Shown: in pieces, positions 31,491 through 49,213 of the stretch
Layout: each line of letters opens with the position of its first letter
Numbering within the stretch: the stretch's first letter is position 1
Origin: Metarhizium brunneum
Lineage: Eukaryota; Ascomycota; Sordariomycetes; Hypocreales; Clavicipitaceae
Reading direction: 5' to 3'
Length of the DNA stretch: 64,000 nucleotides
Assembly (NCBI RefSeq): GCF_013426205.1
Contig: NC_089426.1
Location: 186,001-250,000 of the forward strand
Program-made: the position numbers and the translations under genes
The notes under the pieces: generated by a model
What the model was told of the DNA's origin: nothing
Databases searched by the model: none
The model's input: only the letters and a program-made list of their open reading frames with translations

Positions 31491-33509
31491 CGAGTATCAA
31501 AACCGCAACAGTGCAGACATGGGAGATGATGGGCGTGAAGATGTCAAGTGGAAAAACCAGGACAAGGCAACTGACTGGGGCTTTGGAGGCGAGAGACGAC
31601 GGGAACAAGTCGACTTTTTCGGCAGCCACCGGGCTGGGCTGAGCAGACAGGTTATTAAGTGGAACGGGCTTGTCCGCTTAGTCGCTGACGGGTAACAGCC
31701 ATTGAGACTGCTGCCTTGGACGCCATCGAATGAAAATGGCTCAATTTCTGACTTGACTCTCTCTGTCGTCAATCAATTGATGGCCGTGCTCCACCAGCCC
31801 CTATGCCCTATCCAAGGACGGGATTGGCCCACGGGCACTGGCCCATGGCGCCTCAATCATCCCAGGCTTGGCTGTTATGGGAATGGGCCAGGCAGTTTAT
31901 GGCAAGAGCGACCGTTGACGGGACACTTGCGTAGCAGCAACGAACCCGGAACTTGCCCACCACCAGCATCCGTCCCGCACGCGACAATACCCAGGTGCCA
32001 CTTTGGTCTCGTCGAGCCGCCCTGCTAAGCCTTGTGGATCATTGATTGATCCTTTGTTTCAATTACATTGATCGACGTATTCCGTCCAGACATGTCAATC
32101 TGGTACACAGTGTTGAGTGCTGTCGGCATACAGAGTACATAGTGCCGGGTTCAGCCCAGTCACTGTTCCATCACCCAGGTGGCTTGGCCCTCTCCAGTAG
32201 CCGACCATGCGCCGTGTTGCCGTGTTTTGTCCGCTTTCCCTGAGTCGTACCGTCCAACGTGATACCCTGACCCAACACGGCCGCTCGCCATGGCCAAGGT
32301 CGCAGTCTCGCTTGTCGGCGACTCGCCATGGGCCTTGGAACAACCCCGGCTAGACATAGGCAAGGTACGTATGCTTATGCTTGTTCAGGGATGACTGCCA
32401 TGCGTCCCCGCAGATAATGGCCAAGTCCAAATCCGAAAGTGTCCATGCTTCTTCTCGCACTGCTTTTCAGCTGATGCGTGCAAGTACTCCGTAAAGCAAG
32501 GACAACTGCCTGTGGACGTGCGGAATAGAGAATGCTCTCGTTACAAACATTTCCCTCATCGTAGCCTAGATCAAGAGTTGAGTATGTTGACACGACACAT
32601 CCAACAGGGGAAGCGACAACAGCGGCCATCTGAATAACGACTACGAGGGGAAGGCCTGTGAAACATGGATAAGGACGACAAATAACCAGTTTTTTGTAGT
32701 ACCGATTTCTGTTGAAACGACCAAATCTGCTGTAGGGAAGGACTATGTCGAACTGGCGCGCGTGTGTACAATTCAGACCCTGAAAGTTTGGATGTAATAG
32801 ACCCTGGCCCATGTACCTAAAATCTTTTATCCAGGGCAGCCCGACAAGAAGAGTATAACTGGACCAGCTTTCTAAAATATCCCACATGTGTCCCTTCGTA
32901 CTTCTAGCAAATACGGAGTACAATAAATACGAATGCTCTAGCGAAGCTTGCCCTGCCTACATAGTAGAATTCAACCGAGCTGTGCTAGTTATAAAGCTGC
33001 TTAATGTAAGTAATTATCTTCAGGCGCCAAGCACGTAAAGCTCTAATTTATGGGGCACTTTAGATTTAGCGGATCGGCTTATGCTATGCACTAGTTATAG
33101 TACAGTACGCGTCTATCTTATTATAGCTAGTATACACAGCTTCTCTCTTATGCTACTACTATCAAGGCACGTCAATATTTGATCCCTGACTCGTAGGATA
33201 CATGTACATATTAGCACACTGTTCTATACACTTACAAGCACGTTGTATATCCTAACACCTGTCCTTTTTCCGTGACTCAGAGCCGTATACATGATTTCAC
33301 AGCTAAAGTAGGTAAGAAAGGAGTAGTCCGGATAGTCTGCCCTCGATTCAAGGGCTTCGCTTGTCTATATAAAGGGACACACGGCCCAGTTGCTGTTTTT
33401 TGTTTTTTGGAAGTCCAAGCAGCTTACTCGCCAAAAAAGAAGCCAATATAAACGTTAGCCTAAACTTACTTACTATTTATCTGGCCAGATATTCTTTTAC
33501 GCTATCAAG
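31491..33509. other. Intergenic, increasingly AT-rich
   Basis: The first ~300 bases are the promoter of the glycosyltransferase-like gene. Beyond 32900 the sequence becomes AT-rich with many stops. The 182-codon open stretch at 32375-32923 (minus) has no recognisable feature. The end is the promoter of the micro-exon gene. Confidence 0.5.
33366..33374 (+). promoter_or_regulatory. TATA box of the micro-exon gene
   Basis: TATATAAAG stands alone in a moderately GC-rich patch about 140 bases upstream of the ATG at 33510, followed by a pyrimidine-rich leader. Position and context fit a core promoter. Confidence 0.5.
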
Positions 33510-34847
33510 ATGAAGGCTACAACTACCTTTTTCGCTTTCCTTTTTGGACTGGCTACGGCTAGACCACAAGCGCTACAAGCGCCGGAAAATAACAAAGTAC
33601 TAGTAAGTAGCCGGTTACAATACAATTACTAGACTTCAACAAACGTATATATATTCTAGTGTAGCGCTAACACACCTGGAAACCCTAGAGCAAGGCAGAT
33701 TTCGTGCAGAAGTTCAAGGACCGTTTTGTTGACTGTCGTACAGTAAGCAAACTTTAAAAGTTAACAAGTACAGTTCGTGGTATTAGTATACTAATATATT
33801 AACTATTTTAGCAATTTATATCGCAGCAAATTTCTGTAAGTAAACTCTAAAAGTTAATAAGTATAGTTTGTGATATTAGTATACTGATATATTAACTACT
33901 TTAGGGTGTGTCAGGTTATGAAAATTCTGTAAGTACACTCTAAAAGTTAATCAGTATAACTCGTGGTATTAGTATACTAATATATCGACTACTTTAGAAT
34001 GGGGAAATAAAAGAACAATCCGTAAGTAAACTCTTAAAGTTAACAAGTATAATTTATATTAATAATATACTAATATATTAACTACTTTAGTATGAGGGAA
34101 ATGAGGAAAAATCTTCTAGCATTGCATGCCGTATTTATAACGCCAAGGTAAGGAGAAACTTATACCTTAATAAGTCTGATAGTCTTATAATATAAGGCAG
34201 CGCTAATTGAACTATTTGTAGGGCGATGGAGTAAGCGCTCTTTATAAGAAATTTCTTAGCTCGCAGGCTTGCTAATATAACAATTATTTATAGCCTGTAG
34301 ATCTGGATGCATCATGCGAAGATCAGGAAGGTGGCGTGAGTAATATTTCCTACTTTAAACAAGCACGCTAAGATAAGGTATACTAATAAGCATCTATTTC
34401 TAGTGTGAATTTTGTGTTAATAAGGGCAAGAGCAAGACCCCATGTGGGGAAGTAGTAAGTATTACTATACTTATAAAAGCTAATTATATATTAGGTATAC
34501 TTCTAACAAGCAAATTTAGGAGAATTGGACTTGCCAAGCACAAAAACCTCGGATGGGAACTGAAGCTCCTGGAGAAGACGAGGTAAGACGGCTTTCCTAT
34601 AATCAAATTGTTATTTAGTTACTAGGGCGGGCTATAGCTTTGCCGCGGTGACATGTGCTTAGGGGTTGAAGGCCTAGACAGGCGTTAGCTAACGGATTGG
34701 CAGGGCACCCCGCTGGAATGGGATGCTCAGGGTAACTTGGTTGACCCTACTGGCCGTATTATCCACCCGGCGCAGGAGGCAGACAAAGTGCCCAAAAAGG
34801 CTGATGAGTTCATCGGACCATATTTTACGACTGGGAAGCCTAACTAG
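33510..34847 (+). CDS. Secreted cysteine-containing micro-exon protein, unrecognised
   Basis: Eleven exons were assembled: 33510-33602, 33689-33742, 33812-33835, 33905-33928, 33998-34021, 34091-34147, 34222-34230, 34294-34335, 34404-34454, 34520-34582 and 34704-34847, giving 194 residues. Every exon is a multiple of three and every intron is phase 0. The N-terminus is a clear signal peptide (MKATTTFFAFLFGLATA). The mature part has seven Cys and is rich in Glu, Lys and Gly. Exons 3, 4 and 5 are exactly 24 nt, each ending in Ser; exon 6 begins with a fourth such unit. Exon 7 is only 9 nt (Gly-Asp-Gly). The stop at 34845-34847 is a TAG where the parallel position in an upstream duplicated segment is TTG, and a near-copy of that segment continues to a second in-frame stop at 34884. 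No family is recognised; by signal peptide and genomic setting it could be an effector. The model needs transcript support. Confidence 0.72.
33743..34090 (+). repeat. Array of four near-identical 69-nt introns separated by 24-nt exons
   Basis: Introns 33743-33811, 33836-33904, 33929-33997 and 34022-34090 are each exactly 69 nt, start GTAAG and end TTTTAG or CTTTAG. By eye neighbouring introns differ at 8-9 of 69 positions, nearly all transitions, while the first two 24-nt exons between them agree at only about 10 of 24. The unit of duplication is therefore a ~93-bp exon-plus-intron block. Confidence 0.85.
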
Positions 34848-35379
34848 GTTGACGCTACTGGCCGTATTATCCGCACGCCGCAGTAGCAGTGCTAGGGGGA
34901 GGCAACGCGCTAACTAGATATATTCTCACGAGCAGTTACTTATGTCTGCTCTCGACCGAGATGTATCGGAGCTCGGACTATTCTTTTCTTTTCAGTCTTT
35001 ACCGCATTTCTAGGATACTTAGTGTAGTTGCTCAGCTAGTTATTTATACACTTAGTTGAGACTATACCCGGAGAATCGAAAGGTGCCTTGAGCCTCGGAA
35101 ATAAACGTAAGCAGTGCAAAAAAAGCGATATATAAAGGTTTAGGTCTAGAAAAAGGGCTAGGAATTGGTAAGTATCTAGCAATATATAGCTTAATATTAA
35201 TATACTAATAGATTATATTAGAATATATAAAAAGTTATATAGCTTTAGAAAATTATAAAAGTAAAGTTTATTATAAAAGTTAATGTAAAATTTAGTAAAT
35301 TATATTTTAAATTTGGATTTTATTCGCTTTTTTATAATTAATATAATAGCTTTTTCAATATTACACTTGGATTTTACTT
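34848..35379. other. AT-rich flank with decayed duplicates
   Basis: 34848-34886 is a diverged copy of 34740-34778 in the last exon of the micro-exon gene. At 35168-35221 a GTAAG...TTAG segment shares 'attaatatactaata' with the 69-nt introns and may be a decayed relative. The rest is strongly AT-rich 3' flank between convergent genes. Confidence 0.5.
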
Positions 35380-38300
35380 TTATAAAAGCCTTTGATCTTT
35401 CCGCTCTAAGCGCATAAATAGCTCAAGCCTGTCCACACTATACTCTAGCAACTCTCTAAGGGGGCCACTTTGTCGAGACAAGTCGATTGGCCGTCCTCTT
35501 TCCACGATTCTACCTCCATCGAGCACCAAAAGCTCGTCAAAGTCGATAACGGTGGACAGACGATGAGCAATGACTATAACTGTGCACTTTGAGAAGGCTT
35601 TCCTCAGAATCTGCTGCAGGATGGTGTCGGTCGCTATATCCACCGCGCTTGTGGCTTCGTCTAGCACAAGAATTCGGGGTTTGGACAATATTGCTCTTGC
35701 CAAGCAAATGAGCTGTCTCTGACCTTGTGAGATGTTGGACCCGCCGGAAGCCAGAGACATGCTGAGCGGAAAATCTAGTCCAAGTTCTCGCAACGTCTCG
35801 ATTAGTGTTTTGTCAGAGTGGTCACCCGACATGTTGAGGTTGCTTCGTACGGTTCCGCTAAAGAGAAATGGATCCTGGGGAACAATAAAGATGCGTTGGC
35901 GAACATCTACCAATCTCAGGGTAGAAATATCGATGCCATCAACCATAATTCTTCCTTGTCTACTTTCAAGGATTCGAAATAGGGCGAGTGAGAGTGAGGA
36001 TTTTCCGGCGCCTGTTCGGCCGACAATCCCGACACGCTGGCCTGAATGTACAACAAAGTCAATGTTCTTCAGCACCAGAGGAAGATTTGGATATCCAGTG
36101 GAAAAATTCTCGACGATGATTGTACCCGTCTGTGGCCAATTGTCAGGAGCCTCGCAGCCGGCTCTAAATTCGGATGGCAGCTCGTTATATTCTGCGATTC
36201 GATGGGCAGCATTGACGTCGTTTTGAATCACGACTGCTTTTTTTATAAGCAAGCTCATTGATGCAGAGAATTGCCTGGCCACTATCAACGCAAAGCCAGC
36301 TGATCCAGAATTGATGCGACCTGAAGCAGCTCCAAGTGCAATCATTGCTTCGAAAACAACGCCTAGGATGCCGACGCGCAGTTCCATCCATCTCGAGCAG
36401 AGGCAGTCGTACCAAGCTGCTCTGGACGAATCGTCAATAAGAGCATCCATGTGAAGAATATAATCGGCCGATCTTCCAAAAGCTCTAATTACAAGCAGAC
36501 CGTTTGAAGCCAAGGTCGAATGAAGCTGGCTATACAGCGGGGACAGTTGAGTGGAATTGAGCTGTTGTAGTTGTTGTGCGATGGGCATGCAATATTGTGA
36601 GACTCGCCAATATGCCGCAAGTAGCCCAACAGCACAAACACAGGTGTATGGGGATATAAGCATTCTATTCAACATTAGTTCCATCGAGGGTATTCACTGT
36701 CAGCACGTCTTCTACATCGGATTGCTTACCCAGTCGTCATGACAAACACGAGTCTGGCGGTGAGCTCAATTTCGGCACCAATATTGCTCGCTATTCTCAT
36801 ATCGACGACGATAAAGTCTGAACTGAAACGTTTGAGAATCTCGCCGCGAGGATACGTTTCAATCCAATGCAGAGGCGCCTGCAAGATGGAACGAACCATG
36901 CCGCGAAACATCTTTTGAGAAGCCTTGTGACTGACATTATACAGAGCAAAAGACTTGAAGCCGAGCATCAAGGCACTAGCAATCGATACCAGAATATATA
37001 TCCCGATATAATACATGCCTGAACCGTGGGGTTTTCTGCTTCTGTCATCGACAAGCGCAGCTGTGCCGTCCCCGTAGTCAATGGCAAGGCCATCGGTCCA
37101 GTGTTTCAACCACCACGCTCCGCTGTGTGTCACGGCCTCTGATAGGAGAATGACGATTATTGCACATGACCAACTGGATAGGCTGCCCTGTCGCAAATAT
37201 TCGGCAAGGCCACCAAGAGTCGATTTCTGTTGGTGCGCGGTGGTGCCACTCGCGGTCGGTTGATTCCCGACTGAATTTTTGTCAGAGCCACTTTGAGTCC
37301 CGCCGCCTTCAAGGGCTGTGACAGGTTGTACTGGCTTCATGCTGGTTTCGAGTTTCTCGGTTTCGGTGCCTAGTGCCTGTCGATTTGAAAGATGCATAAC
37401 AAAACTTGCAAATGGCTGGCACATGGCAACGTGATGGGTGACCATGATCAACGTCCTTCCCTGTGCAAGTTGGCCGAGCAATGCCTGTTCCAAGACATGT
37501 TTTCGAACCGATGAGTCGATGGCTGATAGAATATCTCCAATTAATATAGTGCTAGCTTTCGAATATAGTGCTCTAGCCAAACACACCCGCCAGCGTTGCC
37601 CTCCGCTTAATGATGTTCCCTTGGGGCCGACATCAGTTGCATCGCCATTGGGCAAATTTCGGACATCTTTGTCCAACGCACAAGCTTTGACAACGTCAAG
37701 ATACCTCGCTGGATCATACGAACAGCCAAATAAGATGTTCTCCATGAGGGACGTACGCTCTAGCCATGTCGGCTGAGACACAACCGCAACCGGAGATGAT
37801 GTGGGCAAGGTAGTGGCCTGACCATTGCTACAAGGTGCATGAATAGAGCCAGACACTACGTCTGCTTCGCCTAAAATTGCATTCAACACGAGGTTCTTGC
37901 CCGACCCGGTTCCGCCGGCTATAATTGACAGCTTACCACGCGGAAACTGTAAAGACAAGTTGTTGAGGGAAAAGGTTGACGACCGCGCGCCTCCAAAGGA
38001 TTTGGATGGCCATGAAACCGTCACATCTTTAAAAACGACGGATTCCGATGGCACAATGGCGTCTTGTTTCTCTGGTAGCTTCAGGAAAGCTTCTAGTCTC
38101 TCACAACTGGCCCAACACTCCAAGAGATATGACCATGTCAACGGCAGTACAGCAAGGTCAGCTTGAAGCTTTTGTAGTAATCCAAGGGATGTAAACGCAA
38201 TTGAGGCTGTCAATCTCCCGGTTCGGTATGAATAAAGGGCAATGGGTAGAATGCCTAGTATTAGGGGGCAGATATTGGCCAAGACGACGACGATGCACAT

Positions 38301-39921
38301 GGTAACTGAGCTCCGCCGCATCTGGTCCATCTCCCCTTGCCGAATATCCAGGAGTCTATTCTCCCATTGGGATTCAAATACTCCAAGACGTATATCACGG
38401 ATACCTTGCAGTGCTTCCGAGAGCAAGTTGGACCTCTGGTCTCGATACTTCATCAAACCATGGTAGGACTTTGAGTAGGTTGCCGAGATTTTGAAGTTGA
38501 GCGCTGTTGTAACAATTGTACAGATGATGGTTAATGTTATAGCTTGCCATCCAATCAGTTGTGCCAAGGCCATCACCGTGAAAAATAACTTGATAAATGA
38601 TAGGGGGATCAGTATGTTCTGGCTGCAGACGGCCGAAACTTTGCCACTAGTTGCGCAGCTTTAGCCACGCGTCCAAATTGGTGCTTACCAAGATAAGACT
38701 CACGTATCAAGTTGTAAATGATTGTCAATAGACTTTGTAAAGCTCGGTGGATCTTGGCGAGACTGCTGTTGAGAACTCCTGTCTTCGGGCTGACCCTCGC
38801 TGAAGTTTGGTAACTTTAAGGTTTTGCGGTATACGAGGGAGCTCAACACGGCTTGCATAGGAATTTGGAATTGGGACATGGTAAACCACTGCACCAGCTC
38901 TCGTATCCAAACTTCTGCAATGAGACTAAGACCGTACAAGACGCTATAAAGAGTAAGGCTTCGATCCAATTGGTTTTGCTCCAAGGCTTGCAGCAAGTAA
39001 AAGAGCGCATATTGTGGCACAAGTTGCGTCACAGCTTTCATGGCGACAAGAACCCATTGCTTCAGGAGCTGCGGAGAGTAGGCATGAAGCAGCCAAGTCC
39101 AAAGCTTTTGATCAGATCGGTAATCAGGCAACTTATGCATTAAATGACCTGTGTGAAGAGAACTGCCGAGTAGTGGTAGTTTATCCTTGCTTGTAGAAGA
39201 CCCTCGCAACTTGTGGAATATTTTCCTTTCCCATGAGAATGTCAACAGGTCAAGCAAGTGGGCAGTGGAGATTCGGGCGGTTGGTTTCCCTGAAGTAGAC
39301 ATATCCGGGTGCTGAGGATGCAAAAGAAAGCCTACAGTTTGTAAAAAAAGTCCTGCTACTTGCCACGGCCTCCAATATTCTCCTTGATTCAGCTGTTGAC
39401 TTTGCGTCAGAAAAAAAGTCGCTTGTTGGGCAAGCAACATGATGCTGGAGGCAGCCCCGGATACAGCTACGCGAAAGGAGGTCGCGTACCTGTCGGCACT
39501 TATCATGCTGGATACAAGGTAGCACAATTGAAGGCTCCAGTTGAACACCTTGAAAAGAACGTCAGAACTCCAGGCCAAAGCAATCTTGGTTGGAGTCGCT
39601 TACTTGTGGCCAGGCACACCATGATTCTTGGTTCTCCTTTTCGATACAAGTTGATACATGGTCGACAGTGAACCCTGGTCTTGCGGCAGCAATGGCGGCC
39701 CCGACAGATGAAAGCACAAGAGATAGCCTGGTCGACCTTTGATATCTGGTTTTTGAGACAGTCGATACATGGCTGCGTTGACCAGAGATGTATGGGTTGA
39801 AAGCAGCTGCGCTGGCGACGAAGGCATGACAGGCTAGGATAGCATGGACTGCTGAGCAAACGATGCTTGGCCAATCTTTGGGTACAAGGTGGTAACATTT
39901 CTCCATGGCAGAGACTACCAT
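35380..39921 (-). CDS. ABC-C (MRP-type) transporter
   Basis: Four exons on the minus strand: 39604-39921, 38704-39548, 36730-38622 and 35380-36664, giving about 1446 residues, normal for a full MRP-type exporter. The order is N-terminal hydrophobic TMD0-like segment, TMD1, NBD1, TMD2, NBD2. NBD2 is canonical: Walker A GRTGAGKSS, a variant signature ISQGQRQ and Walker B ILVLDEATSAVD with the catalytic Glu. NBD1 is degenerate: its Walker A reads GGTGSGKN (Asn for the usual Ser/Thr) and the Walker B end reads IGDILSAID, although LSGGQRW is intact. It thus probably has one hydrolysing and one non-hydrolysing site, as in many ABC-C proteins. The start is uncertain; 39921 is the first in-frame ATG but upstream exons are possible. 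It adjoins UstYa, peptidase and hydroxylase genes and may export their product. Confidence 0.87.
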
Positions 39922-41214
39922 GCTTGCCGGTCTGGCGCTGACGAATTTGATGGCAAAAGGTTTGCGGATAGTAGCGATGGTCTCTCTCTGTGTCGCCACT
40001 AGTTGTAGGGGCAAAGGAGCATGTAATTTGAGAGCTTTACGACCGCGGAAGATGATGGCTGATGCTGAAATTTGCACCCAGCCATGTTAAAAACTACACA
40101 TGCAGCCTTGTGCTGACGCTTCTCCTGACGGGGGTGAAGGGATGTGCGAGGCTGGGGCTCCTACTTGGGTGAACCACACCGCACAACTCTCGGGTACCAG
40201 ATACGATACGTCTCTTGATTCCGAGCACTGTGTGACATCTAGGGGTGTGCGACAAATACAGTCATCTGACTGGATGAAGGACCCTGCCCGAATACCTCAT
40301 CTGCATGTCGGAGGTAGCGGTCCAAAATCCTCTGGGTTCGGCCGGTCTCAAACCCGTCAAATATTTCCACCATCAGACCCAACAAGTTCTGCTCGCTTGC
40401 AAGTCCTGCATATGTCTGGTACTGGACAGAGTGAGGCGGGGTTGTGGGCTTACATTGGCTGACGTTACAGATCTGTCATGGACGACATTTTGGATCTGCA
40501 TGTTGGCTCGCTCATCAGGCCATCACACAAAAGTCCTGTCGTAGACAAGCACACAAGTACTCCTTATGTATCACGTTTCACGCAGACGAAGCGAGGTCAC
40601 ATCGCACGGCTGAGATGGCTGCCGTCGGACAAGACAAGTCTGGTCAGTGAAACATACCCGCATCCCCAACCAATCTTTACATGTATGTACTGGCCCCGTT
40701 CGGGTAGAGACTGGCTGGGAGTGTTCGGAATTGACGGGAACAGATGGGTACCTGTCCCATTGACCCTATCGCAGCTGATATTGTTGGATTGGAAATACAT
40801 CAGCGATTTACACAGCGGAAAAGCTCAGTGGTTATTGTAGAGGCCTTTGGGTCCTCAATTGAACTAACTTGACGATATTGACGATGGATTCAATTCTCTG
40901 TTCAACACCATAAAACTCCGACAATTGACCCTTTTTAATACCCTACGTGACCGTGAATCCCAACGCTAGATCGACGAGCCCCAATGGGCAACTATCGTGA
41001 CCATCAGCCTCCGAACATCACCTTTTTCAACCAACAGATATGAGGTATGGGGTAGGTATCTGGAAAGTAGGAAAGTATGAGAGACATATTCTTGCTCATG
41101 ACTGCTAGAAATCGACAACAAGATACCACAATAGACCAAGTAGCACATTGACGTGTCGTCGTCCAGTAGTTGTCCATGGAATTGCCGCTGCGCAAAAGCA
41201 TCAATCAAAGTCAT
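39922..41214. other. Intergenic, no gene supported
   Basis: It contains the promoter of the ABC transporter. A 120-codon open stretch at 40478-40840 (plus) has no recognisable feature. Confidence 0.45.
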
Positions 41215-41934
41215 TCAAAGGTAATCGGATTCTAATCTAATACCAGACATGACTCCTCTTGAACTTCGGGAAAGAAACAGACTGCCGCAGTGATTAATGT
41301 GCTTCTCACTGTCATATCGAGGCTCAACTAGGACTCCGTTGAATTGAGACCGAAATTGCTTTCTCCAGTAGAAAAAGCAGTGTGCTATATGCCATTCCGC
41401 GGTTGAGTAGAACCTGAAGGTGTAATCGTCCACGTGGTTCCCTATTTCTCCTGGAGATATCTCCAATGTGTGGTTTGAGTCGGTCCAATATCGCCAGCTG
41501 CCGTGAGGGCCATCACCCAAGTTTTCGAACTCAATAGTGAGCTGCTCGTCTCGACATTGCGCTGGCAACCAGGCTGCGGCGAGAGAGTCGTACTTGCAAC
41601 CCATTGCGCGTGCCTCGGCAAGAGTGATTCCGCAATTGCAGCTCCCCAAAGCAGCTTGTCTCCTTTGGCTGTTTGAATCATTGATAATTTCTCTGCTATT
41701 ACATATCGTGGCCGGGCGCAGCATCGTCACCAGTCCCGGTATAGCGAAACCGACCAGGATAAGATCCTTCAGGATGCACCAAGGGGATAGAAAATATCGC
41801 GTGAGCCAGGTATTGATGCTTTTGCGCCTGTCATAGTCCAGTCGGCCATAGCGTCGTTCGTGTTCCTTTTATCAACAATCAGGGGCACACTCTTATAAAG
41901 TAAATTTTCGTGTTGATTCACTCACATCCTCCAT
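41215..41934 (-). CDS. Membrane protein with two HxxHC motifs, distant UstYa-like
   Basis: Two exons on the minus strand: 41926-41934 (only nine bases, MED) and 41215-41865, giving 219 residues. The tiny first exon is the minimal model; an open frame continues upstream of it, so the true start may lie further right behind another exon. One membrane helix (LILVGFAIPGLVTML) follows a basic RYGRLDYDRRKS stretch. The lumenal part carries CNCGITLAEARAMGC, AAAWLPAQC and two histidine motifs, HIAHC at 162-166 and HINHC at 192-196. That paired spacing is the hallmark of UstYa/DUF3328 oxidative cyclases, although the surrounding sequence belongs to a different, widespread fungal family of unknown function. 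It lies between the ABC transporter and the peptidase. Confidence 0.75.
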
Positions 41935-42330
41935 GCTTCTTATTTCGAATGCCTTCCAGTATCCTCGGCCGGCGTAGAAAAGGTCAGAAAAGAGCAAAGG
42001 CAGTGCGTGCTTGTCGGAATAAGATTGATGAGCGTCGGGTGAAGAAGCGGAGCACCCTCTTTCGGTTCACCTGTTACTACCCGGGGTGGTGTGGAAAAGA
42101 TCCTTGTTGCGTCAATCGCCATGGCGACTTGATAGCTTGGCAAGGCATTGTGCAAGGGTGAATAAGCTGCATACCGTCAACGACTAAGGTCTGGTCAAGT
42201 CCTGTTTTCGCACGCGGGTTGTAGTGGCGTAACAGAACTCGGCTGGATGCCAACCCGTCTTTGCAGCGGGCTGATTTTATGAGCTCCAACTCGACCATTA
42301 TCTGTTTGATAGTTTTTAAAAGCTATCACC

Positions 42331-44181
42331 ATGATCTTCAGAATGAATCTTGCCACTTTTCTCGCCGTGACGAAGCTGTTCCTTATGGCTTGTGAAGCCA
42401 CTGAGCAATGGGAAAGGATACCTGGAGGCTGGAATGTAGCCAGCAAACCGACGCCAGATACTATTGCTACATTCACTCTGGCATTGAACATGGAAAATAT
42501 TGACTTTTTGGCTTCGGAACTTTTGGATATCTCCGATACGGAAAGCCCCAATTATGGGAAACATTGGGATCAAGCAGATGTATATTCAAGATTTGCTCCT
42601 TCTAATGCAACCGTCTCAACCACCCTGGATTGGCTGGTTGGCGGAGGTGTTCAAAATTACACAGTCGATTGGATATTCATTGACTTCACTACAACTATTG
42701 CTACAGCAGACAGTCTTTTGAACGCGTCATACCACTACTACACGAATAATGTGACGACAGAGCTTCGAACGGCGAGCTATTCTGTCCCCGAAAGAATCCA
42801 AAACAGCGCTCTGCTCATATCTCCTGGAACTTATTTAGGAGTGCCAAATTCGGTGCCACTATCGCTTCGTCCATACGGAGCTCGTGAGCCGCTTCAACGC
42901 TCTGTTGTATCAAAGGATGACAACCCATGTCTTCAAGCAATAAGTCCGTCATGTCTCAAACACATGTACAAAGTAGCAAACTATACTCCCCATGAAGGGT
43001 CGGGTAGCACTATCGGGTTCTCGAGCTTCCTCAATCAATCAGCTCTTTACAATGACCTCTTCGAGTTCGAAAGACATTTTGCTATCCCGGGTCAGAATAT
43101 TTCTGTTGAACTGGTTGCGGGTGGTATAGATAACCAGAATGAGTCTACAGCACAGTTTGCAGAGGCCGACCTGGACGCTCAAACTATTGTTGGTATTGCT
43201 CATCCGCTGCCAGTTACGCAGTTCATAATCAGTGGGAATCCGTACGTGTATTTCACTAAAACAAATTTCTCAATCACTTACTTTCATTTTAGACCATTTA
43301 TTCCAAATATCGATCACAAGACGGAGAATCGAAACTTCAATGAGCCGTATGTCCCTTATTACAGGCACCTTTTGTCACGGTCAAAGAGTGACCTCCCATA
43401 TGTCATCTCCAACTCATATGGTGAACAGGAGGACTCGGTGCCAATCAGATATGCCTTGCTTACCTGCAATCTAATTGGCTTTTTGGGCCTCCGAGGAGTA
43501 ACAGTTGTGCAGTCTTCCGGAGACACTGGAGTGGGAAGCGGTTGTTTGGCACCCGACCTCGGGACTGCCGAATTCTATCCCATTTTCCCTGCCACTTGCC
43601 CATGGATAACAAGCGTTGGCGGTACAGTTGGATTTTCACCGGAATCTGCTTGGAAAGGGAGCTCTGGTGGATTCAGCCGCTACTTTTCCCGACCTTCTTA
43701 TCAAGACGCCACAGTCTGCAGGTACATGGACATGGTGGCTTCCGAAACATATGCATACTATGGAAAGTACACAAACTGGAACGGACGTGCATTTCCAGAT
43801 GTTGCCGCTCATAGCCTATCTCCAGACTTTCAAGTTGTGTATCGAGGACTGGTTGCGATGAGCGGCGGGACGAGTGCATCAGCACCAGTCTGGGCAGGCA
43901 TTGTAGCCCTGCTCAATGATGCAAGGCTGCGAGCTGGCAAGCCAGTTCTCGGATGGCTGAATCCGCTTCTTTATGCCCGGGGATTCCTGTCGTTGAACGA
44001 CATTACTGAGGGTTTCAGTGAAGGTTGCCATGGTATAAATCCAGGCACAAATGCTACTGAGCCAGACGGGGCTGGAATAATCCCAGGGGCCAGATGGAAT
44101 GCGACAACAGGCTGGGACCCTGTAACTGGGTTGGGCACCCCGGATTTTCAGAAGTTGAAGCATCTTGTCCTGAGCCTCTAA
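42331..44181 (+). CDS. Secreted S53 (sedolisin/tripeptidyl-peptidase) family protease
   Basis: Two exons, 42331-43241 and 43293-44181, give 599 residues. The 51-nt intron has a length divisible by three and no stop, so the whole 616-codon frame is also open; splicing restores the conserved GNPPFIPNID junction. A signal peptide precedes a pro-domain with ESPNYGKHW. The catalytic domain has the Glu/Asp block FAEADLDAQTI, the oxyanion Asp in SSGDTGVG and the nucleophile Ser in GGTSASAPVWAG. Calcium-site residues near TGWDPVTGLGTP close the domain. Such enzymes work at acid pH on peptides, removing tripeptides or cutting internally. Sitting among UstYa-like genes it may trim the cluster peptide, though a general nutritional role is possible. 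Confidence 0.9.
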   Translation: MIFRMNLATFLAVTKLFLMACEATEQWERIPGGWNVASKPTPDTIATFTLALNMENIDFLASELLDISDTESPNYGKHWDQADVYSRFAPSNATVSTTLDWLVGGGVQNYTVDWIFIDFTTTIATADSLLNASYHYYTNNVTTELRTASYSVPERIQNSALLISPGTYLGVPNSVPLSLRPYGAREPLQRSVVSKDDNPCLQAISPSCLKHMYKVANYTPHEGSGSTIGFSSFLNQSALYNDLFEFERHFAIPGQNISVELVAGGIDNQNESTAQFAEADLDAQTIVGIAHPLPVTQFIISGNPYVYFTKTNFSITYFHFRPFIPNIDHKTENRNFNEPYVPYYRHLLSRSKSDLPYVISNSYGEQEDSVPIRYALLTCNLIGFLGLRGVTVVQSSGDTGVGSGCLAPDLGTAEFYPIFPATCPWITSVGGTVGFSPESAWKGSSGGFSRYFSRPSYQDATVCRYMDMVASETYAYYGKYTNWNGRAFPDVAAHSLSPDFQVVYRGLVAMSGGTSASAPVWAGIVALLNDARLRAGKPVLGWLNPLLYARGFLSLNDITEGFSEGCHGINPGTNATEPDGAGIIPGARWNATTGWDPVTGLGTPDFQKLKHLVLSL

Positions 44182-44329
44182 GCCTTTCTTGCAACAATAT
44201 ATGTACTCTCTCGATCCTGGCGCACATAGTCCGCCCAGAAGTAAACAAGATTACTACCGCGTCGCCTAGTTTAGGTATTATGTGCCCCTCGATGCATGCC
44301 CAGTGACTCTGGGAAAAAAAAATCTACAT

Positions 44330-45088
44330 TTACTTTGGTCCAAATACTCTCTCTACAGTGTCGCCAACAGCCAAGTCCCAAGGTTGAATAGGACTCACAG
44401 CCGACCCCTCCGAAACCGACCAAAGTAGATCTGTATTCCTGCACCGATGCATTGTTCCAAGGCCGTCCACACCATGAGCAACGATGTTCCCAGCATCATC
44501 CTTTCTGACCCATGGTCGCTCAATTGTGCCATCACCAGCACACATGATTGCCTTTGAGGACACAAGGTAGGTTAGCTCTCTCTGGGGAGATAAACATGGG
44601 CGATAGAAGGCTATAAATACCTGTGCGAGATAACCTATGCAATGAGGTAAATGACTCTCATGTAGGAAATGTTGGTCGGCATGCTCGTCCCGTCGGGCGG
44701 AATGGCTATCCTGCGGGTGCTCTGGTGTACTTAGCACCTCCTTCTGGAGCATTGCTCTCAAAAGCGATAGGCAGTGCATTTGGTGAAACATGGAAATTCC
44801 CCAGTCTATGTTGAACGTTTGATTGTGCCTTATTGAGATGAAGCCCTCATTTTTAGGCATTACAGTAGAAAACCAATGTTCGTCGTTATGATAGGAAAAG
44901 TCTTCCAAAGCAGTGGACCGCGTGAAATTATTCATCTTCCATGATTCTGAAAGTTTTTCATCATGACGATAGCAGATACGAAACGGGATTTTCGTGTGAA
45001 GCTGAAGTGTCAAAACTACCAAGCTAAACATTAAGATCCCTATCGCCAGCGGATAAAGGTTCCTGGTCTTGAAGAATTTGAATTCCAT
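44330..45088 (-). CDS. UstYa-like (DUF3328) oxidase 1
   Basis: Two exons on the minus strand (44621-45088, 44330-44551) give 229 residues. The N-terminus has one membrane helix (LYPLAIGILMFSLVVLTL). The two histidine motifs of the family are HQMHC at residues 102-106 and HLPHC at 146-150, followed after the splice by AIMCAGDGTIERPW and HGVDGLG..HRC, which mark the subgroup. UstYa proteins catalyse oxidative side-chain crosslinking, hydroxylation or cyclisation in fungal peptide and other pathways, probably with copper, in the secretory lumen. It converges with the S53 peptidase (148 bp between stops) and is divergent from the second UstYa gene. Confidence 0.92.
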   Translation of the reverse strand: MEFKFFKTRNLYPLAIGILMFSLVVLTLQLHTKIPFRICYRHDEKLSESWKMNNFTRSTALEDFSYHNDEHWFSTVMPKNEGFISIRHNQTFNIDWGISMFHQMHCLSLLRAMLQKEVLSTPEHPQDSHSARRDEHADQHFLHESHLPHCIGYLAQVFIAFYRPCLSPQRELTYLVSSKAIMCAGDGTIERPWVRKDDAGNIVAHGVDGLGTMHRCRNTDLLWSVSEGSAVSPIQPWDLAVGDTVERVFGPK

Positions 45089-45808
45089 GGAATCGCTCTT
45101 TGAAGTACGTATTGCAGAGAAGGAAAGGGGCGAGAAGAAATTGCTGGTTCGTGACTACGTTATGTTGAGTGTTTGTCAGGAACAGCCCAGCTGGGGGGGC
45201 ATTTAACCGAGCTTGACTTCACGATTGAGGCTGCAGGAGAAAAAACTAAGAAACCCTTGAGGATATATGTACCCCATCTGCCAGGATACCGGACGGGGGG
45301 TAGTCCTAATAATACAGCGACTCTCTAGGACACCGTGTCGAAAGGTTTAATAGTACTAGACTGAGCCCAATATAATTGCCGCTACTGTCAGGTCAACTGT
45401 GATATGTCACATAATAGCGCTTAACGAGGGATCTTCCGGCCTTGAGCGCCTCAATATGTCCTGTAGCTTTCTGTACCCTACCTATAGTTTACCTGCACGG
45501 AGTCTTTTTGGGCGTGCCCGAGAGCCGCCCACACCGTCATCAACGCTGCAACATTCCGTTTACGAGCATCTAGGCCGTCTGGACCCCAGTTCACTCGGGT
45601 AGACAAGAAAACGCTAGATAACCTTTCCCACATTAGACATTATCAGGTGTCTAGGACAACTTTTCCTGGTTCTTGCCTGTTTCTCGTGCCTGCCAACCAA
45701 AGACTCTGCCGCAAGCGTGTCGCAATTTGTACCTTTGATCAACTATAAACTGAAAAGATTACCTGGGCACATGCTGAAAACATCATTCAAGTCCCAACGT
45801 AGAAAGAA
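45089..45808. promoter_or_regulatory. Divergent intergenic region between two UstYa genes
   Basis: About 720 bases separate the two starts. Divergent placement suggests co-expression. No specific operator could be recognised; short open stretches here look like chance. Confidence 0.4.
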
Positions 45809-46788
45809 ATGTTCCATGGCAGACGAGGCTCAATTTGCAGTGAGCGCCGTGTTGAGCACCAACAGCTACTTGACAACGACGGCCGGTTCATTTCAGAGCG
45901 TGTAAAGTGTTCGAGATGGCTATTTATTCTCAGTCTCGGATCATTAGCCCTAAATGTCGTTCTTCTCTGTATTACTTTTCTCCATGATTATACTGAGCGT
46001 CTAAACCGCACGCCTCAATTACTATACTGTGAGTGACGAACGAGTGCTGTGTATTACCGGCAACATGGCTCCCAAACTTACTCCGTCAACAGCTCCCGCC
46101 CAAGATGCTATTCATTATGAAGTAAAAAAGTTTCATCGAGGTTTTGGGGATAAAAAAACTGCATACCAAGGAGACCCTTCTCCAGAAGTCGACAAGGTAT
46201 GGAAGAGTCTGTACAATGGTAGGTTTCGTCTCTTCTATTCAACCTCACCGCGGATGCATTATTTTTGACACTGTCACCCAGAAATTGGTATAAGCAGATT
46301 ATCTCGGGAACAAGCACAGCTCCTTCCAAATCGCACGTACCCATTCATAGGAGATGAGGGGTACTACATAGCGGAGTTGGCTGTCTTCCATCAGCTCCAT
46401 TGTGTTGTATGTAAGGATCTCTTATCCACAAATGATTGGTTCCTAACATAGCGACCAGAACGCAATTAGAATAGCGTTATCCAAAGACTACTATCAAACG
46501 GTCTTCAGTCTAGAAGAGTTCGACGATGCTCAAGGCTCGTATGGGCGTGACCACATTAGCCACTGCCTAGATGCCGTTCGGGAGGCAATCATGTGCGCTT
46601 CTGATATCAGTGTCATTACTTGGCAATGGAATGATCAAGCAGAAAAGGCTTTAGGCCATGGCGATGTTCTTCACACCTGTCGAAGCTTCGAAAAAATTAA
46701 AGAATGGGCAGCTGAGAATCAAGCGCTGGTGGACTTCAACGCCGACGTCTTCGTCAAAGGCGACCCCGTTGTGGATGGCGTTGACTAA
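45809..46788 (+). CDS. UstYa-like (DUF3328) oxidase 2
   Basis: Four exons: 45809-46028, 46093-46218, 46282-46406 and 46459-46788, giving 266 residues. After a cytosolic N-terminus comes one membrane helix (WLFILSLGSLALNVVLLCI). The lumenal part includes HRGFGDKKTAYQGDPSPEVD, then HQLHC at residues 152-156 and HISHC at 189-193 followed by LDAVREAIMC, all diagnostic of DUF3328, and ends with HTCRSFEKI. The splice in HQLHCV|NAIR is phase 0. By family it performs an oxidative crosslink or hydroxylation on a peptide in the ER/Golgi. It converges on the prolyl-hydroxylase-like gene, with about 130 bp between stops. Confidence 0.93.
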
Positions 46789-46915
46789 TACTTGTCTGGG
46801 AAACTCAGAGTAAAGGTGCCTGGATTTCAAATCAATACGCCGTCATGTTTGGCAGCCATGGTAAACTTGCTCCGTTTATTGCAATTTTTTGAACCACTAC
46901 GTATAGCGACGCCCC

Positions 46916-47891
46916 CTACTTGGCGTCATTTTCTTTTCCTTTGTCTTCAGACCAGATGTTCATTCCAATTTTCTGCCCAAATAAAACAGGCATTCCGGCA
47001 TGGAGTGTTTCTGGGTGGACTTGTCCGGATTCCCGCACATTCTCCCAAAATATCGCGTTCCCGGCGATAGCTTTGAATACGACCCCTTCACGAGGCGTCT
47101 CGTCGCATTCTATATAGTCGCACCAGTTTTTTTCTACTGGCTTTTTCAACAATGGGAAATGTGTTCCACCGCCAGTGACATTTGCATAAAGATAGACAAA
47201 AAACGTGGTTCTTCGAGGATTGGACTTGCTCCAATCATAATGTTTCACGTAATGTCCAGCCGTTCCATATTTAACGATCTGAATTGCCTCCATTTCTCCA
47301 GTCAAAGCACCAAATCCTTGGAAAGCCTGGGCTCGATCCTCTATGCATTGGATCAGCTTCGTTCGCTTGGGATAGGCAGTTTTTGCATGCCTATGGTTTT
47401 GGTCAATGGTAGTGCTGCCATTGGAAAGAATAATTTTGGAATCCTCGAATTCAGTTTCGCTATGATCGAATTAGATGGCTTCAAGTGGAAGTGCAATCAA
47501 TCCACGGGATGTTTTACTTCAGCTTTGTTAGCTCTGTCGCTTCGAAATCGGTTATAAAGGAGGAAATGTAGATAACGAGCGGGCCAGTAGAGAAGACGTG
47601 AACACGATAGGCATGACGACGGCAATCCCGATCGATAAATGCCTCGGGACTCTTATATTGATAGAACCCCAAGATGTAATTGCAAACGGAAGTCCAATTG
47701 AGTACAGCCAAGATGTTGATTGCAATAGCCGAGAGCAGTACGACCCGGGCTGGTAGATAGTTCATATTCTTGCAGGGTCGCAAAATGGACACAAAAGTCG
47801 AGTTGTAGAGGTTGGAGAACCCTGCGTCAAAACGTCCGGTTGGCCCTGAGATTGACATTGGCAACTCCAGGCTTTCGTTGCGAGGGGGCAA
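46916..47891 (-). CDS. Membrane-anchored prolyl-4-hydroxylase-type 2OG-Fe(II) oxygenase
   Basis: Two exons on the minus strand (47518-47891, 46916-47459) give 305 residues. An N-terminal membrane helix (ARVVLLSAIAINILAVLNW) places the catalytic part in the secretory lumen. The double-stranded beta-helix is complete: iron ligands His198 and Asp200 in KHYDW, His278 in LHAGMPV, and the 2-oxoglutarate-binding Lys288 in FGQKIGMNIW. FSTGPLVIYISSFI and AQAFQG are typical of the P4H alpha-subunit-like group. The enzyme should hydroxylate proline (or another residue) of a secretory peptide using O2, 2-oxoglutarate and iron. The neighbouring 51-residue peptide contains a Pro-Pro-Pro run, an attractive substrate. 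Confidence 0.9.
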
Positions 47892-49002
47892 TTACATGTG
47901 TGAAAACAGAATACAGAAGGCGATGTGCATCAAGCTGTCAGCTGGGGACCATATTCGTTCAATTCAAACGCCTTTTTCATGATCAGGTTAAAGTGTAGCC
48001 TCAAACATGCGCATATAGAACGGTTGGTCGCTCCCTTGGTGATTCTTTCGTCGTCGGAAGAAGCTCCGACAGCACCGAATTCATGACAAATCGTATTAGC
48101 ACATGCACATCCCCAGACGTTGTCCAAGTCAGATACTCCCCAGTCAAACAAGGTTGCCATGCATGGCAGAGCATAATGACCTACGGGATGTGTGGGCGTG
48201 TATATATAACAGTCTTTCATTTCGCAAGGTACATGTTCAAGTAATTGAGAGTATCAGGATGTGAGTGGAGATTGGTCATGATTTGGATGGGGTGCATATA
48301 TGAGTGCATGATATGGTGATCAAAAGTCCCGCGGGATGAATATTTGGAAACAGTGTGCATCCATGGAGTTTGGACGTTGGCGATAATTCACTGATATGCA
48401 TGCATTTCATGGTGTGGTAATCAAATGTCCGTAAAGAGGACATGAAGTAGCAGTCAATATCCGTGGGGTTTGGATGTTGGTGATGAGTTCAATCCGATGC
48501 ATGCATCAACGTGTGGTACGGTGATGACAAGTTCTGTGAGAGCCAACATCCATTGATGGGGCTTGGATGTCCGGTTGGTGACAATTTCAGCGAGGTGCAT
48601 GTTTTATGATGTGCTCTGCTCGTCAAAGAGCCCGAAAAGTGGCACAATCTCGAGAATCGGTCAACTTCCGTGGTGTAGAGATGCTGATGATGCAATACGC
48701 ATCGTCAAGTGCACAACGGAACAGGGCCAAGTGCGGAGTGTACTGATATCTGTCGTGTTGGTTCATGTCAATCCCTTAGTACGATGAATCCCATGTAATT
48801 GATGTCAATCAACTGGTTGGAAAACTTAACCCCGCATTCATCATGCTATATTGACCAGACTGCTTATAAAATGGTCTGGTCAAATCACTCCTTGGGAGTC
48901 GCTGAACTATTAGCCCTTCACCCTGTTTTTATTCTTCCCAGAAACAATTCAAGACATTTAAAAGCATTCCCATTCCAACCAGCACATCAGTTGACAACCA
49001 AG
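47892..49002. other. Divergent region between hydroxylase and peptide gene, with tandem repeat
   Basis: It holds the promoter of the hydroxylase gene at the left, a degenerate tandem repeat (48265-48690), and a TATA-like TTATAAAAT near 48864 that is probably the core promoter of the peptide gene starting at 49003. Open stretches on both strands have no recognisable features. Confidence 0.45.
48265..48690. repeat. Degenerate tandem repeat, about 100-bp unit, roughly four copies
   Basis: Phrases recur in order: 'tttggatg', 'gttggtgat' or 'gttggcgat', 'atgcatgcat', 'ggtgtggt' or 'gatatggt', 'gatcaaaagtc' or 'aatcaaatgtc', then 'atccatgg' or 'atccgtgg'. Units are diverged and frames are broken by stops. 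It could be a minisatellite or the decayed remains of a repeat-containing gene. Confidence 0.6.
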
Positions 49003-49213
49003 ATGAAAAATCACTTTCTTGTTGCTCTCCTACTCTCCATCTCTGGAATTGTTAGCTCTGGGCCTATAGTGGAGCGAGTGCGTTGAATACACCAGACAGA
49101 CATTTCGTGTCTGAATATTAACTCTTATTCAGGATACCCTCGATGTTCTCAATGGCAACAGTGGCTGGACCCCGCCTCCCGGCCGCAAGAGAGATGCGAC
49201 TGGAAATATCTGA
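49003..49213 (+). CDS. Candidate secreted RiPP precursor peptide
   Basis: Two exons, 49003-49077 and 49133-49213, give 51 residues. The intron has a GTGCGT donor, a TTAAC branch region and a TTCAG acceptor, phase 0. The first ~19 residues form a signal peptide (MKNHFLVALLLSISGIVSS). The mature part reads PIVERDTLDVLNG, then NSGWTPPPGRKRDATGNI to the stop. A Lys-Arg pair at 44-45 is a likely Kex2-type cleavage site; Trp37 and Pro39-41 are potential crosslinking and hydroxylation sites. It is next to a prolyl-hydroxylase-type oxygenase and close to two UstYa genes, an S53 protease and an ABC exporter. Unlike known multi-copy dikaritin precursors it has a single core-like segment. Small size makes the gene call uncertain without transcripts. 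Confidence 0.62.

What the first reader, a model, noticed from the sequence alone, without database searches (positions are those of the whole stretch)
35380..49213. Candidate undescribed dikaritin-like RiPP gene cluster
Within 14 kb lie an ABC-C exporter, two UstYa/DUF3328 oxidases, a third protein with paired HxxHC motifs, a secreted S53 peptidase, a membrane 2OG prolyl-hydroxylase-type enzyme and a short secreted peptide gene. UstYa plus peptidase plus transporter plus precursor is the known composition of fungal dikaritin pathways; a prolyl hydroxylase and an S53 peptidase are not parts I associate with described ones. There is no tyrosinase or methyltransferase.
Basis: partly seen in the sequence, partly recalled or inferred. 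Interest (0 to 1): 0.88.

Follow-up and report, generated by a model that had tools for sequence, protein, structure and literature searches.

The report
Fungal modified-peptide gene cluster with hydroxylase
An insect-pathogenic fungus carries a compact set of genes that very probably makes a small secreted peptide and chemically modifies it, combining a familiar fungal type of cross-linking enzyme with a proline-hydroxylating enzyme not usually seen there; the product is unknown.

Summary
Seven genes at 35,380-49,213 of a Metarhizium contig (size matches M. brunneum ARSEF 4556): an ABC exporter; three membrane proteins with paired HxxHC motifs (two pass the Pfam UstYa cut-off, one is a diverged look-alike); an S53 peptidase with intact active-site motifs; a membrane oxygenase with all prolyl-4-hydroxylase residues; and a 51-residue secreted precursor. 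The precursor gives the strongest new evidence: signal peptide + DTLDVLNGNSGWTPPPGRKR + short tail. A 98% identical protein is annotated in M. anisopliae, one locus tag away from the UstYa orthologue on the same contig; a Conoideocrella protein carries exactly two tandem copies of the 20-residue unit, marking it as the Kex2-released core. Three other UstYa loci of this genome hold repeat precursors; the two whose 5' ends I read share the exon layout. Best reading: a dikaritin-like RiPP pathway with new composition (P4H, S53, Tyr-free core, one core copy), a new variant of a known kind. The two surveys seen required at least three repeats and would miss it. Not shown: expression, product, any enzyme activity, conservation of P4H, S53, B and exporter, or a UstYa in Conoideocrella. 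A tyrosinase lies about 15 kb away, outside the window, relevance unknown.

The parts
35380..39906 (-). ABC exporter with two transporter halves (ABC-C-like), 1,449 aa; introns 39,603-39,549, 38,703-38,647, 36,729-36,665; membership of the cluster unproven
41215..41934 (-). Protein B: membrane protein, 219 aa, HIAHC and HINHC; first exon 41,934-41,926, intron 41,925-41,866
42331..44181 (+). S53 peptidase (sedolisin), 616 aa, intronless; E278/D282, D398, S515 motifs; Tyr343 at the position that is aromatic in tripeptidyl peptidases
44330..45088 (-). UstYa D, 229 aa, HQMHC and HLPHC; intron 44,620-44,552
45809..46788 (+). UstYa E, 266 aa, HQLHC and HISHC; introns 46,029-46,092, 46,219-46,281, 46,407-46,458
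46916..47858 (-). Prolyl-4-hydroxylase-type 2OG oxygenase, 294 aa, N-terminal membrane span, H187 D189 H267 K277; intron 47,517-47,460
49003..49213 (+). Precursor peptide, 51 aa; exon 1 signal peptide, intron 49,078-49,132, exon 2 core unit and tail
49133..49192 (+). Core unit DTLDVLNGNSGWTPPPGRKR (one copy here, two in Conoideocrella)
41935..42330 (.). Divergent promoter of B and S53
   Evidence: gene models
45089..45808 (.). Divergent promoter of UstYa D and E
   Evidence: gene models
47859..49002 (.). Divergent promoter of P4H and precursor
   Evidence: gene models

Best explanation
A dikaritin-like RiPP pathway. The 51-aa precursor enters the secretory pathway by its signal peptide (inferred from hydropathy). 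Kex2 cuts after KR and releases the unit DTLDVLNGNSGWTPPPGR, whose borders are shown by the exact tandem duplication in Conoideocrella (cleavage itself inferred). The membrane-anchored UstYa proteins E and D, perhaps with B, oxidise side chains of the unit, most likely a cross-link or desaturation in the NGNSGWT part, as there is no Tyr (inferred from UstY chemistry in print). The membrane-anchored P4H hydroxylates one or more prolines of PPP; Pro-Pro-Gly in the Metarhizium core is an X-Pro-Gly triplet as collagen P4Hs use (inferred). The S53 peptidase, by one residue of tripeptidyl-peptidase type, trims tripeptides from the free N-terminus until the modified part stops it; removal of DTL, DVL and NGN would leave SGWTPPPGR (inferred). 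The ABC protein exports the product (inferred). Shown here: gene models, conserved precursor and core, conserved catalytic residues, adjacency of precursor and UstYa in a second species.
For: Precursor conserved as an annotated protein in two other fungi, with the core unit duplicated exactly in one. Precursor and UstYa E orthologue one locus tag apart, same 465,503-base contig, in M. anisopliae. Two full UstYa proteins with both HxxHC motifs. Same exon layout (signal peptide in exon 1, cores in exon 2) in the two C3 repeat precursors that sit beside UstYa genes in this genome. A protein-B paralogue lies in the C3:119-126 kb precursor/UstYa locus; 2 of 5 B-type loci are near UstYa genes. P4H residues invariant in 5 of 5 proteins, nearest solved structures are P4Hs. 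S53 active-site motifs intact. Four membrane enzymes with one N-terminal span plus two secreted-type proteins fit one secretory route.
Against: No expression or product data. No Conoideocrella protein among the 46 UstYa hits, so there the precursor may lack this UstYa. None of the 4 P4H relatives found is from Metarhizium or Conoideocrella, and the consecutive M. anisopliae locus tags leave no annotated P4H between precursor and UstYa. Only one core copy here. No Tyr in the core. No shared promoter motif found. Relevance of exporter and S53 rests on position alone.
Confidence: 0.8

Rival explanations
1. Smaller RiPP cluster: only precursor, UstYa E and D (perhaps B) act on the peptide; P4H, S53 peptidase and ABC exporter are neighbours with other roles.
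For: P4H not found in other Metarhizium or Conoideocrella protein sets and not annotated between precursor and UstYa in M. anisopliae. S53 genes occur at 9 loci of this genome. ABC, S53 and P4H are not part of the minimal asperipin set.
Against: P4H lies between UstYa E and the precursor and shares the precursor's divergent promoter; S53 shares a promoter with B. Co-location of S53 and 2OG genes at one UstYa locus is unlikely under uniform placement. Annotation of the locus in public genomes is poor: D's 95% relative is known only from an unnamed assembly source.
Confidence: 0.3
2. The peptide is secreted and cut by Kex2 but is a plain linear signal peptide (pheromone-like), and the UstYa genes serve something else.
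For: Small single-core precursor with a C-terminal KR; linear Kex2 peptides are common: 6,120 of 7,878 KEPs had no DUF3328 gene nearby (PMC7329392).
Against: The abstract of the same paper says almost all mating-factor KEPs (three exceptions) lack a DUF3328 neighbour, while here precursor and UstYa are adjacent in two species.
Confidence: 0.1
3. A decaying cluster that no longer makes a product in this strain.
For: One core copy against two in Conoideocrella; AT-rich repetitive-looking sequence next to the exporter.
Against: All seven frames are open over GT-AG introns with conserved catalytic residues, and the precursor differs from the M. anisopliae one at 1 of 51 positions.
Confidence: 0.07

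Closest known systems
Ustiloxin and phomopsin type dikaritin pathways
   Same: Signal peptide, Kex2-type KR sites, UstYa proteins, a peptidase and a transporter in one cluster (passages).
   Different: No tyrosinase, methyltransferase or S41 peptidase in the 14 kb; S53 and P4H instead; core without Tyr and present once rather than 8 or 16 times.
Asperipin-2a pathway
   Same: Precursor, UstYa homologue and transporter without tyrosinase or peptidase (passage).
   Different: There a Tyr-rich core, one UstYa and a reductase; here Tyr-free core, two UstYa plus protein B, P4H and S53.
Kex2-processed repeat proteins (KEPs) near DUF3328 genes; about 20% contain W
   Same: Secreted Kex2 peptide next to DUF3328 genes; a W-and-P type is reported (section 7).
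   Different: KEPs by definition have three or more repeats (section 13); here one.
Collagen-type and algal prolyl 4-hydroxylases
   Same: Same residue set and best solved relatives (7zsc 1.7e-9, 2jig 4.5e-7).
   Different: Fungal membrane protein beside a 51-aa precursor; substrate unproven; closest sequences are three Aspergillus proteins and one unnamed.
Conotoxins
   Same: Secreted peptide from a precursor, with proline hydroxylation among its modifications (PMC6514808 passage).
   Different: Animal peptides, genes not clustered, disulfide scaffold, no UstYa.

Membership tests
Dikaritin, revised usage (DUF3328 protein as class-defining enzyme) | DUF3328/UstYa protein with two HxxHC motifs | tested here: met
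   E and D; definition from PMC12048977 section 23
Dikaritin, original five-part gene definition | Precursor with N-terminal leader | tested here: met
   Hydrophobic N-terminus by Kyte-Doolittle, no signal-peptide predictor was run; conserved in two relatives
Dikaritin, original five-part gene definition | Repeated core/recognition motifs | tested here: not met
   One unit in the window; two in Conoideocrella
Dikaritin, original five-part gene definition | Tyrosinase in the cluster | tested here: not met
   None in the window among 15 PF00264 matches; nearest about 15 kb past the precursor
Dikaritin, original five-part gene definition | Methyltransferase in the cluster | tested here: not met
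   None among the modelled genes or 10 scanned leftover ORFs; a heavily split gene is not excluded
Dikaritin, original five-part gene definition | Multiple DUF3328 proteins | tested here: met
   Two
Dikaritin, original five-part gene definition | Transporter or peptidase | tested here: met
   ABC protein and S53 peptidase
Dikaritin, structural definition (Tyr ether cross-link) | Tyr in the core | tested here: not met
   No Tyr in DTLDVLNGNSGWTPPPGRKR; definition in PMC11253845 passage
Dikaritin, structural definition (Tyr ether cross-link) | Cross-linked product | not testable with these tools
   Needs mass spectrometry
KEP (PMC7329392) | Three or more repeats of at least 8 aa between Kex2 sites | tested here: not met
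   One repeat; rule
Prolyl 4-hydroxylase | HxD...H iron site and Lys for 2-oxoglutarate | tested here: met
   H187, D189, H267, K277 invariant in 5 of 5; role of each residue is recalled knowledge
Prolyl 4-hydroxylase | Acts on peptidyl proline | not testable with these tools
   Assay needed; fold model failed
S53 tripeptidyl-peptidase subfamily | Active-site motifs and aromatic residue at position 307 | tested here: met
   EADLD, SGDTG, GGTSAS; Tyr343 aligned with Trp of human TPP1; mapping of position 307 is mine; the clade is described with Trp or Phe, here Tyr
UstYa family, for protein B | Match to the family profile | tested here: inconclusive
   No Pfam match; HxxHC pairs align at probability 36%

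The most novel reading that the evidence does not exclude
A distinct branch of fungal RiPPs: a single-core, Tyr-free, Trp- and Pro-containing peptide oxidised by a set of UstYa enzymes that includes a new diverged HxxHC family (protein B), hydroxylated on its PPP run by a dedicated membrane prolyl 4-hydroxylase, and trimmed by a tripeptidyl peptidase. It would be the first fungal UstYa pathway known to me with a P4H, and would show that repeat-based genome mining has overlooked precursors with one or two cores.
Probability: 0.4. Interest if true: 0.75.

Novelty: new variant of a known kind. Interest (0 to 1): 0.56.

Why it matters
The two surveys of Kex2-processed precursors seen here both required at least three core repeats, so UstYa pathways with one- or two-core precursors fall outside their lists; this locus gives a sequence-defined example with a testable core. 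If the P4H acts on the core, fungal RiPP chemistry gains proline hydroxylation by a clustered enzyme, and the Tyr-free core would widen what UstYa enzymes are known to modify. In an insect pathogen used for biocontrol, a conserved secreted modified peptide is also of ecological interest.

Tried and rejected
Alternative splicing of the peptide gene: 14 acceptors were enumerated with the one donor. The longer readings (124, 114 and 84 aa) lose the Kex2 core; the 51-aa reading is the one annotated in M. anisopliae.

Shared promoter motif: a spaced-dyad count over the three divergent promoters gave no stand-out.

Tyrosinase 15 kb away as a cluster member: set aside, not excluded. The core has no Tyr, other metabolic genes lie between, and its PF18132 domain suggests a pigment-type enzyme (the last is recall). 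A comparison with a reading frame of the C1 tyrosinase region gave no alignment, but that frame may not be the coding one, so it says nothing.

S41 at the C1 locus: the piece scores 21.7 bits for PF03572, below the cut-off of 24, and 31.7 for a CPAF-like PDZ domain, above its cut-off; the genome-wide S41 search listed 2 other loci, not this one.

Literature: the searches cover open PubMed Central papers only. Searches list 15 of 191 and 12 of 22 papers; none listed holds UstYa together with prolyl 4-hydroxylase, sedolisin, tripeptidyl peptidase or S53. In one search one paper held dikaritin, DUF3328 and prolyl hydroxylase, a plant-peptide review; its passages show the last two only in its reference list. 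Four locus tags of relatives gave 0 papers. What I saw: PMC7329392 abstract, sections 7 and 13, passages; PMC12048977 section 23 and passages; PMC12352038 first of two parts of the text; passages only of PMC6339444, PMC6514808, PMC9233826, PMC7099791, PMC10989895, PMC6278154, PMC12186524, PMC11457142, PMC11253845; all others as search listings. PMC7842015 was asked for once (error) and not read.
Full report
Where this is. The window is C5:186,001-250,000 of a fungal genome of 37,771,916 bases in 7 contigs. The closest proteins of precursor and UstYa E are from Metarhizium and Conoideocrella, and a published table gives 37.77 Mb for M. brunneum ARSEF 4556 (PMC12352038), so this is very probably that strain. 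The cluster lies about 0.22 Mb from the start of contig C5.

What is there. From left to right: ABC exporter (-), protein B (-), S53 peptidase (+), UstYa D (-), UstYa E (+), prolyl-hydroxylase-type oxygenase (-), precursor (+). The six genes after the exporter form three head-to-head pairs. The first-stage list is right in every item. Refinements: UstYa D has a 69-nt in-frame intron, whose removal improves its Pfam E-value from 1.1e-12 to 2.5e-19 and which homologue P0023 lacks; protein B gains a nine-base first exon with a start codon; UstYa E has four exons, the first junction agreeing with P0008; the exporter starts at 39,906 or 39,921 and is open over three introns.

The precursor. Exon 1 encodes a hydrophobic N-terminus, a 55-nt GT-AG intron follows, and exon 2 encodes DTLDVLNGNSGWTPPPGRKR and the tail DATGNI. 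The protein search returned 2 relatives from 2 candidates: a 51-aa protein of M. anisopliae BRIP 53293 (98%) and a 70-aa protein of Conoideocrella luteorostrata (83% over 92% of the query). The latter holds two identical tandem copies of the 20-residue unit ending in KR; the unit differs from the window's at 1 of 20 positions (G to D), while the signal-peptide part matches at 19 of 25 alignment columns. A duplication with exactly these borders is what a Kex2-released core would give. In this genome the sequence occurs once.

Link to UstYa. A profile of E and D found 46 proteins at E up to 1e-10 among 2,988 candidates; orthologues of E are in M. anisopliae, M. guizhouense and M. acridum and, more distantly, in Cladobotryum, Apiospora, Purpureocillium and Podospora. 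The M. anisopliae one is H634G_09870 and the precursor H634G_09869, both with a 465,503-base contig as longest contig. That is evidence of conserved adjacency. It also means that the P4H, which lies between them here, is unannotated or absent there. Against my reading: no Conoideocrella protein appeared, and the four P4H relatives are three Aspergillus proteins and one unnamed, none from Metarhizium or Conoideocrella. Because UstYa D, too, has its 95% relative only in an unnamed assembly source (P0007), and two public UstYa E models read into an intron, annotation gaps are likely; but conservation of P4H, S53, B and exporter is not shown.

The genome's own comparison set. Three other UstYa loci hold repeat-type Kex2 precursors. 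C3:119-126 kb: two near-identical units ending SGW[G/S]YIKARDEKR, three UstYa genes and a protein-B paralogue. C3:172-181 kb: four PQGSFIWDWA units, UstYa genes, a polyketide-synthase piece and a DIOX_N-type 2OG oxygenase. C1:5.222-5.228 Mb: six VEDYFIG units with UstYa, tyrosinase and a weak S41-like piece (21.7 bits, cut-off 24). In the two C3 precursors the signal peptide is in exon 1 and the cores in exon 2, as in the window. The C1 locus is the textbook type; the window's cluster has no tyrosinase or S41 match and has S53 and P4H instead.

Enzymes. E and D carry two HxxHC motifs each. UstY enzymes are reported to use a dicopper site for oxidative cross-linking (PMC12186524 passages; the primary paper is not held). 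Protein B has the same topology and motif pair but no Pfam match; the profile comparison is only suggestive (probability 36%), and 2 of 5 B-type loci lie near UstYa genes. The oxygenase has the P4H residue set, invariant in 5 of 5 proteins; all but one of its 9 solved relatives at E up to 0.01 are named as prolyl hydroxylases. That collagen P4Hs use X-Pro-Gly is stated in an abstract start listed. The S53 protein has its active-site motifs, and Tyr343 aligns with the Trp of human TPP1 at the position where fungal tripeptidyl peptidases have Trp or Phe and endopeptidases Ala; one residue is thin evidence. P4H, E, D and B each show one N-terminal membrane span by hydropathy, which suits one secretory route.

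Chance. S53 (12 matches, 9 loci after merging exons), PF13640 (5 matches, one below cut-off), UstYa (27 over-cut-off matches, of which I entered 20 positions in 13 loci): an S53 and a 2OG gene fell at the same UstYa locus in 7.75e-5 of 400,000 random placements, and at least 2 of 5 B-type loci near UstYa in 2.9e-4. Singly the figures are less striking: an S53 gene near any UstYa locus 4.6%, a 2OG gene 2.6%. The families were picked after seeing the locus and placement was uniform, so these are guides only.

How it most likely works. Signal peptide, Kex2 release, UstYa oxidation in the NGNSGWT part, proline hydroxylation of PPP, tripeptide trimming by S53, export by the ABC protein. Only the anatomy is shown; each chemical step is inference from family knowledge.

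What to call it. In the revised usage, with DUF3328 as class-defining enzyme, it counts; by the original five-part definition three features are not met (PMC12048977 section 23); by the structural definition the Tyr is missing (PMC11253845 passage). I therefore say that it works like a dikaritin pathway and file it as a new variant, not as a dikaritin proper. Both surveys seen required three or more repeats (PMC7329392 section 13; PMC6339444 passages). No paper listed (15 of 191, 12 of 22) joins UstYa with a P4H or an S53 peptidase. antiSMASH regions called fungal-RiPP-like are reported for this strain without naming loci in the passages seen (PMC11457142), so the locus may already carry such a flag.

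Noticed in passing
G000 C1:5,221,992-5,228,088 (L044, L045): A textbook dikaritin-type locus: six VEDYFIG units between KR sites (C1:5,227,843-5,228,088, minus strand), a UstYa gene, a tyrosinase and a weak S41-like piece.
   Followed up: partly
G000 C3:119,113-126,029 (L018): Precursor with two SGW[G/S]YIKARDEKR units, three UstYa genes and a paralogue of protein B; suggests that B-type proteins belong to this kind of pathway.
   Followed up: partly
G000 C3:172,203-180,825 (L020): Precursor with four PQGSFIWDWA units, UstYa genes and, beside a polyketide-synthase piece, a DIOX_N-type 2OG oxygenase.
   Followed up: partly
G000 C5:250,154-252,291 (L041), just outside the window: Tyrosinase gene with a PF18132 C-terminal domain about 15 kb past the precursor; relation to the cluster unknown.
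   Followed up: partly
window 48,271-48,692: Diverged direct repeats (three copies of 40 nt, 70-73% alike, and three of 28 nt, spaced about 100 or 205 nt) in the promoter shared by P4H and precursor.
   Followed up: no
window 33,000-35,380: AT-rich stretch (37-41% G+C) with repeated TAATATATTAGTATACTAATA-like pieces at the 3' border of the exporter, looking like decayed repeat DNA.
   Followed up: no
proteins P0008, P0009, P0010: Public models of UstYa E orthologues look wrong: M. anisopliae and M. acridum models read into the first intron and lack the membrane span; the M. guizhouense model lacks the first HxxHC motif.
   Followed up: yes
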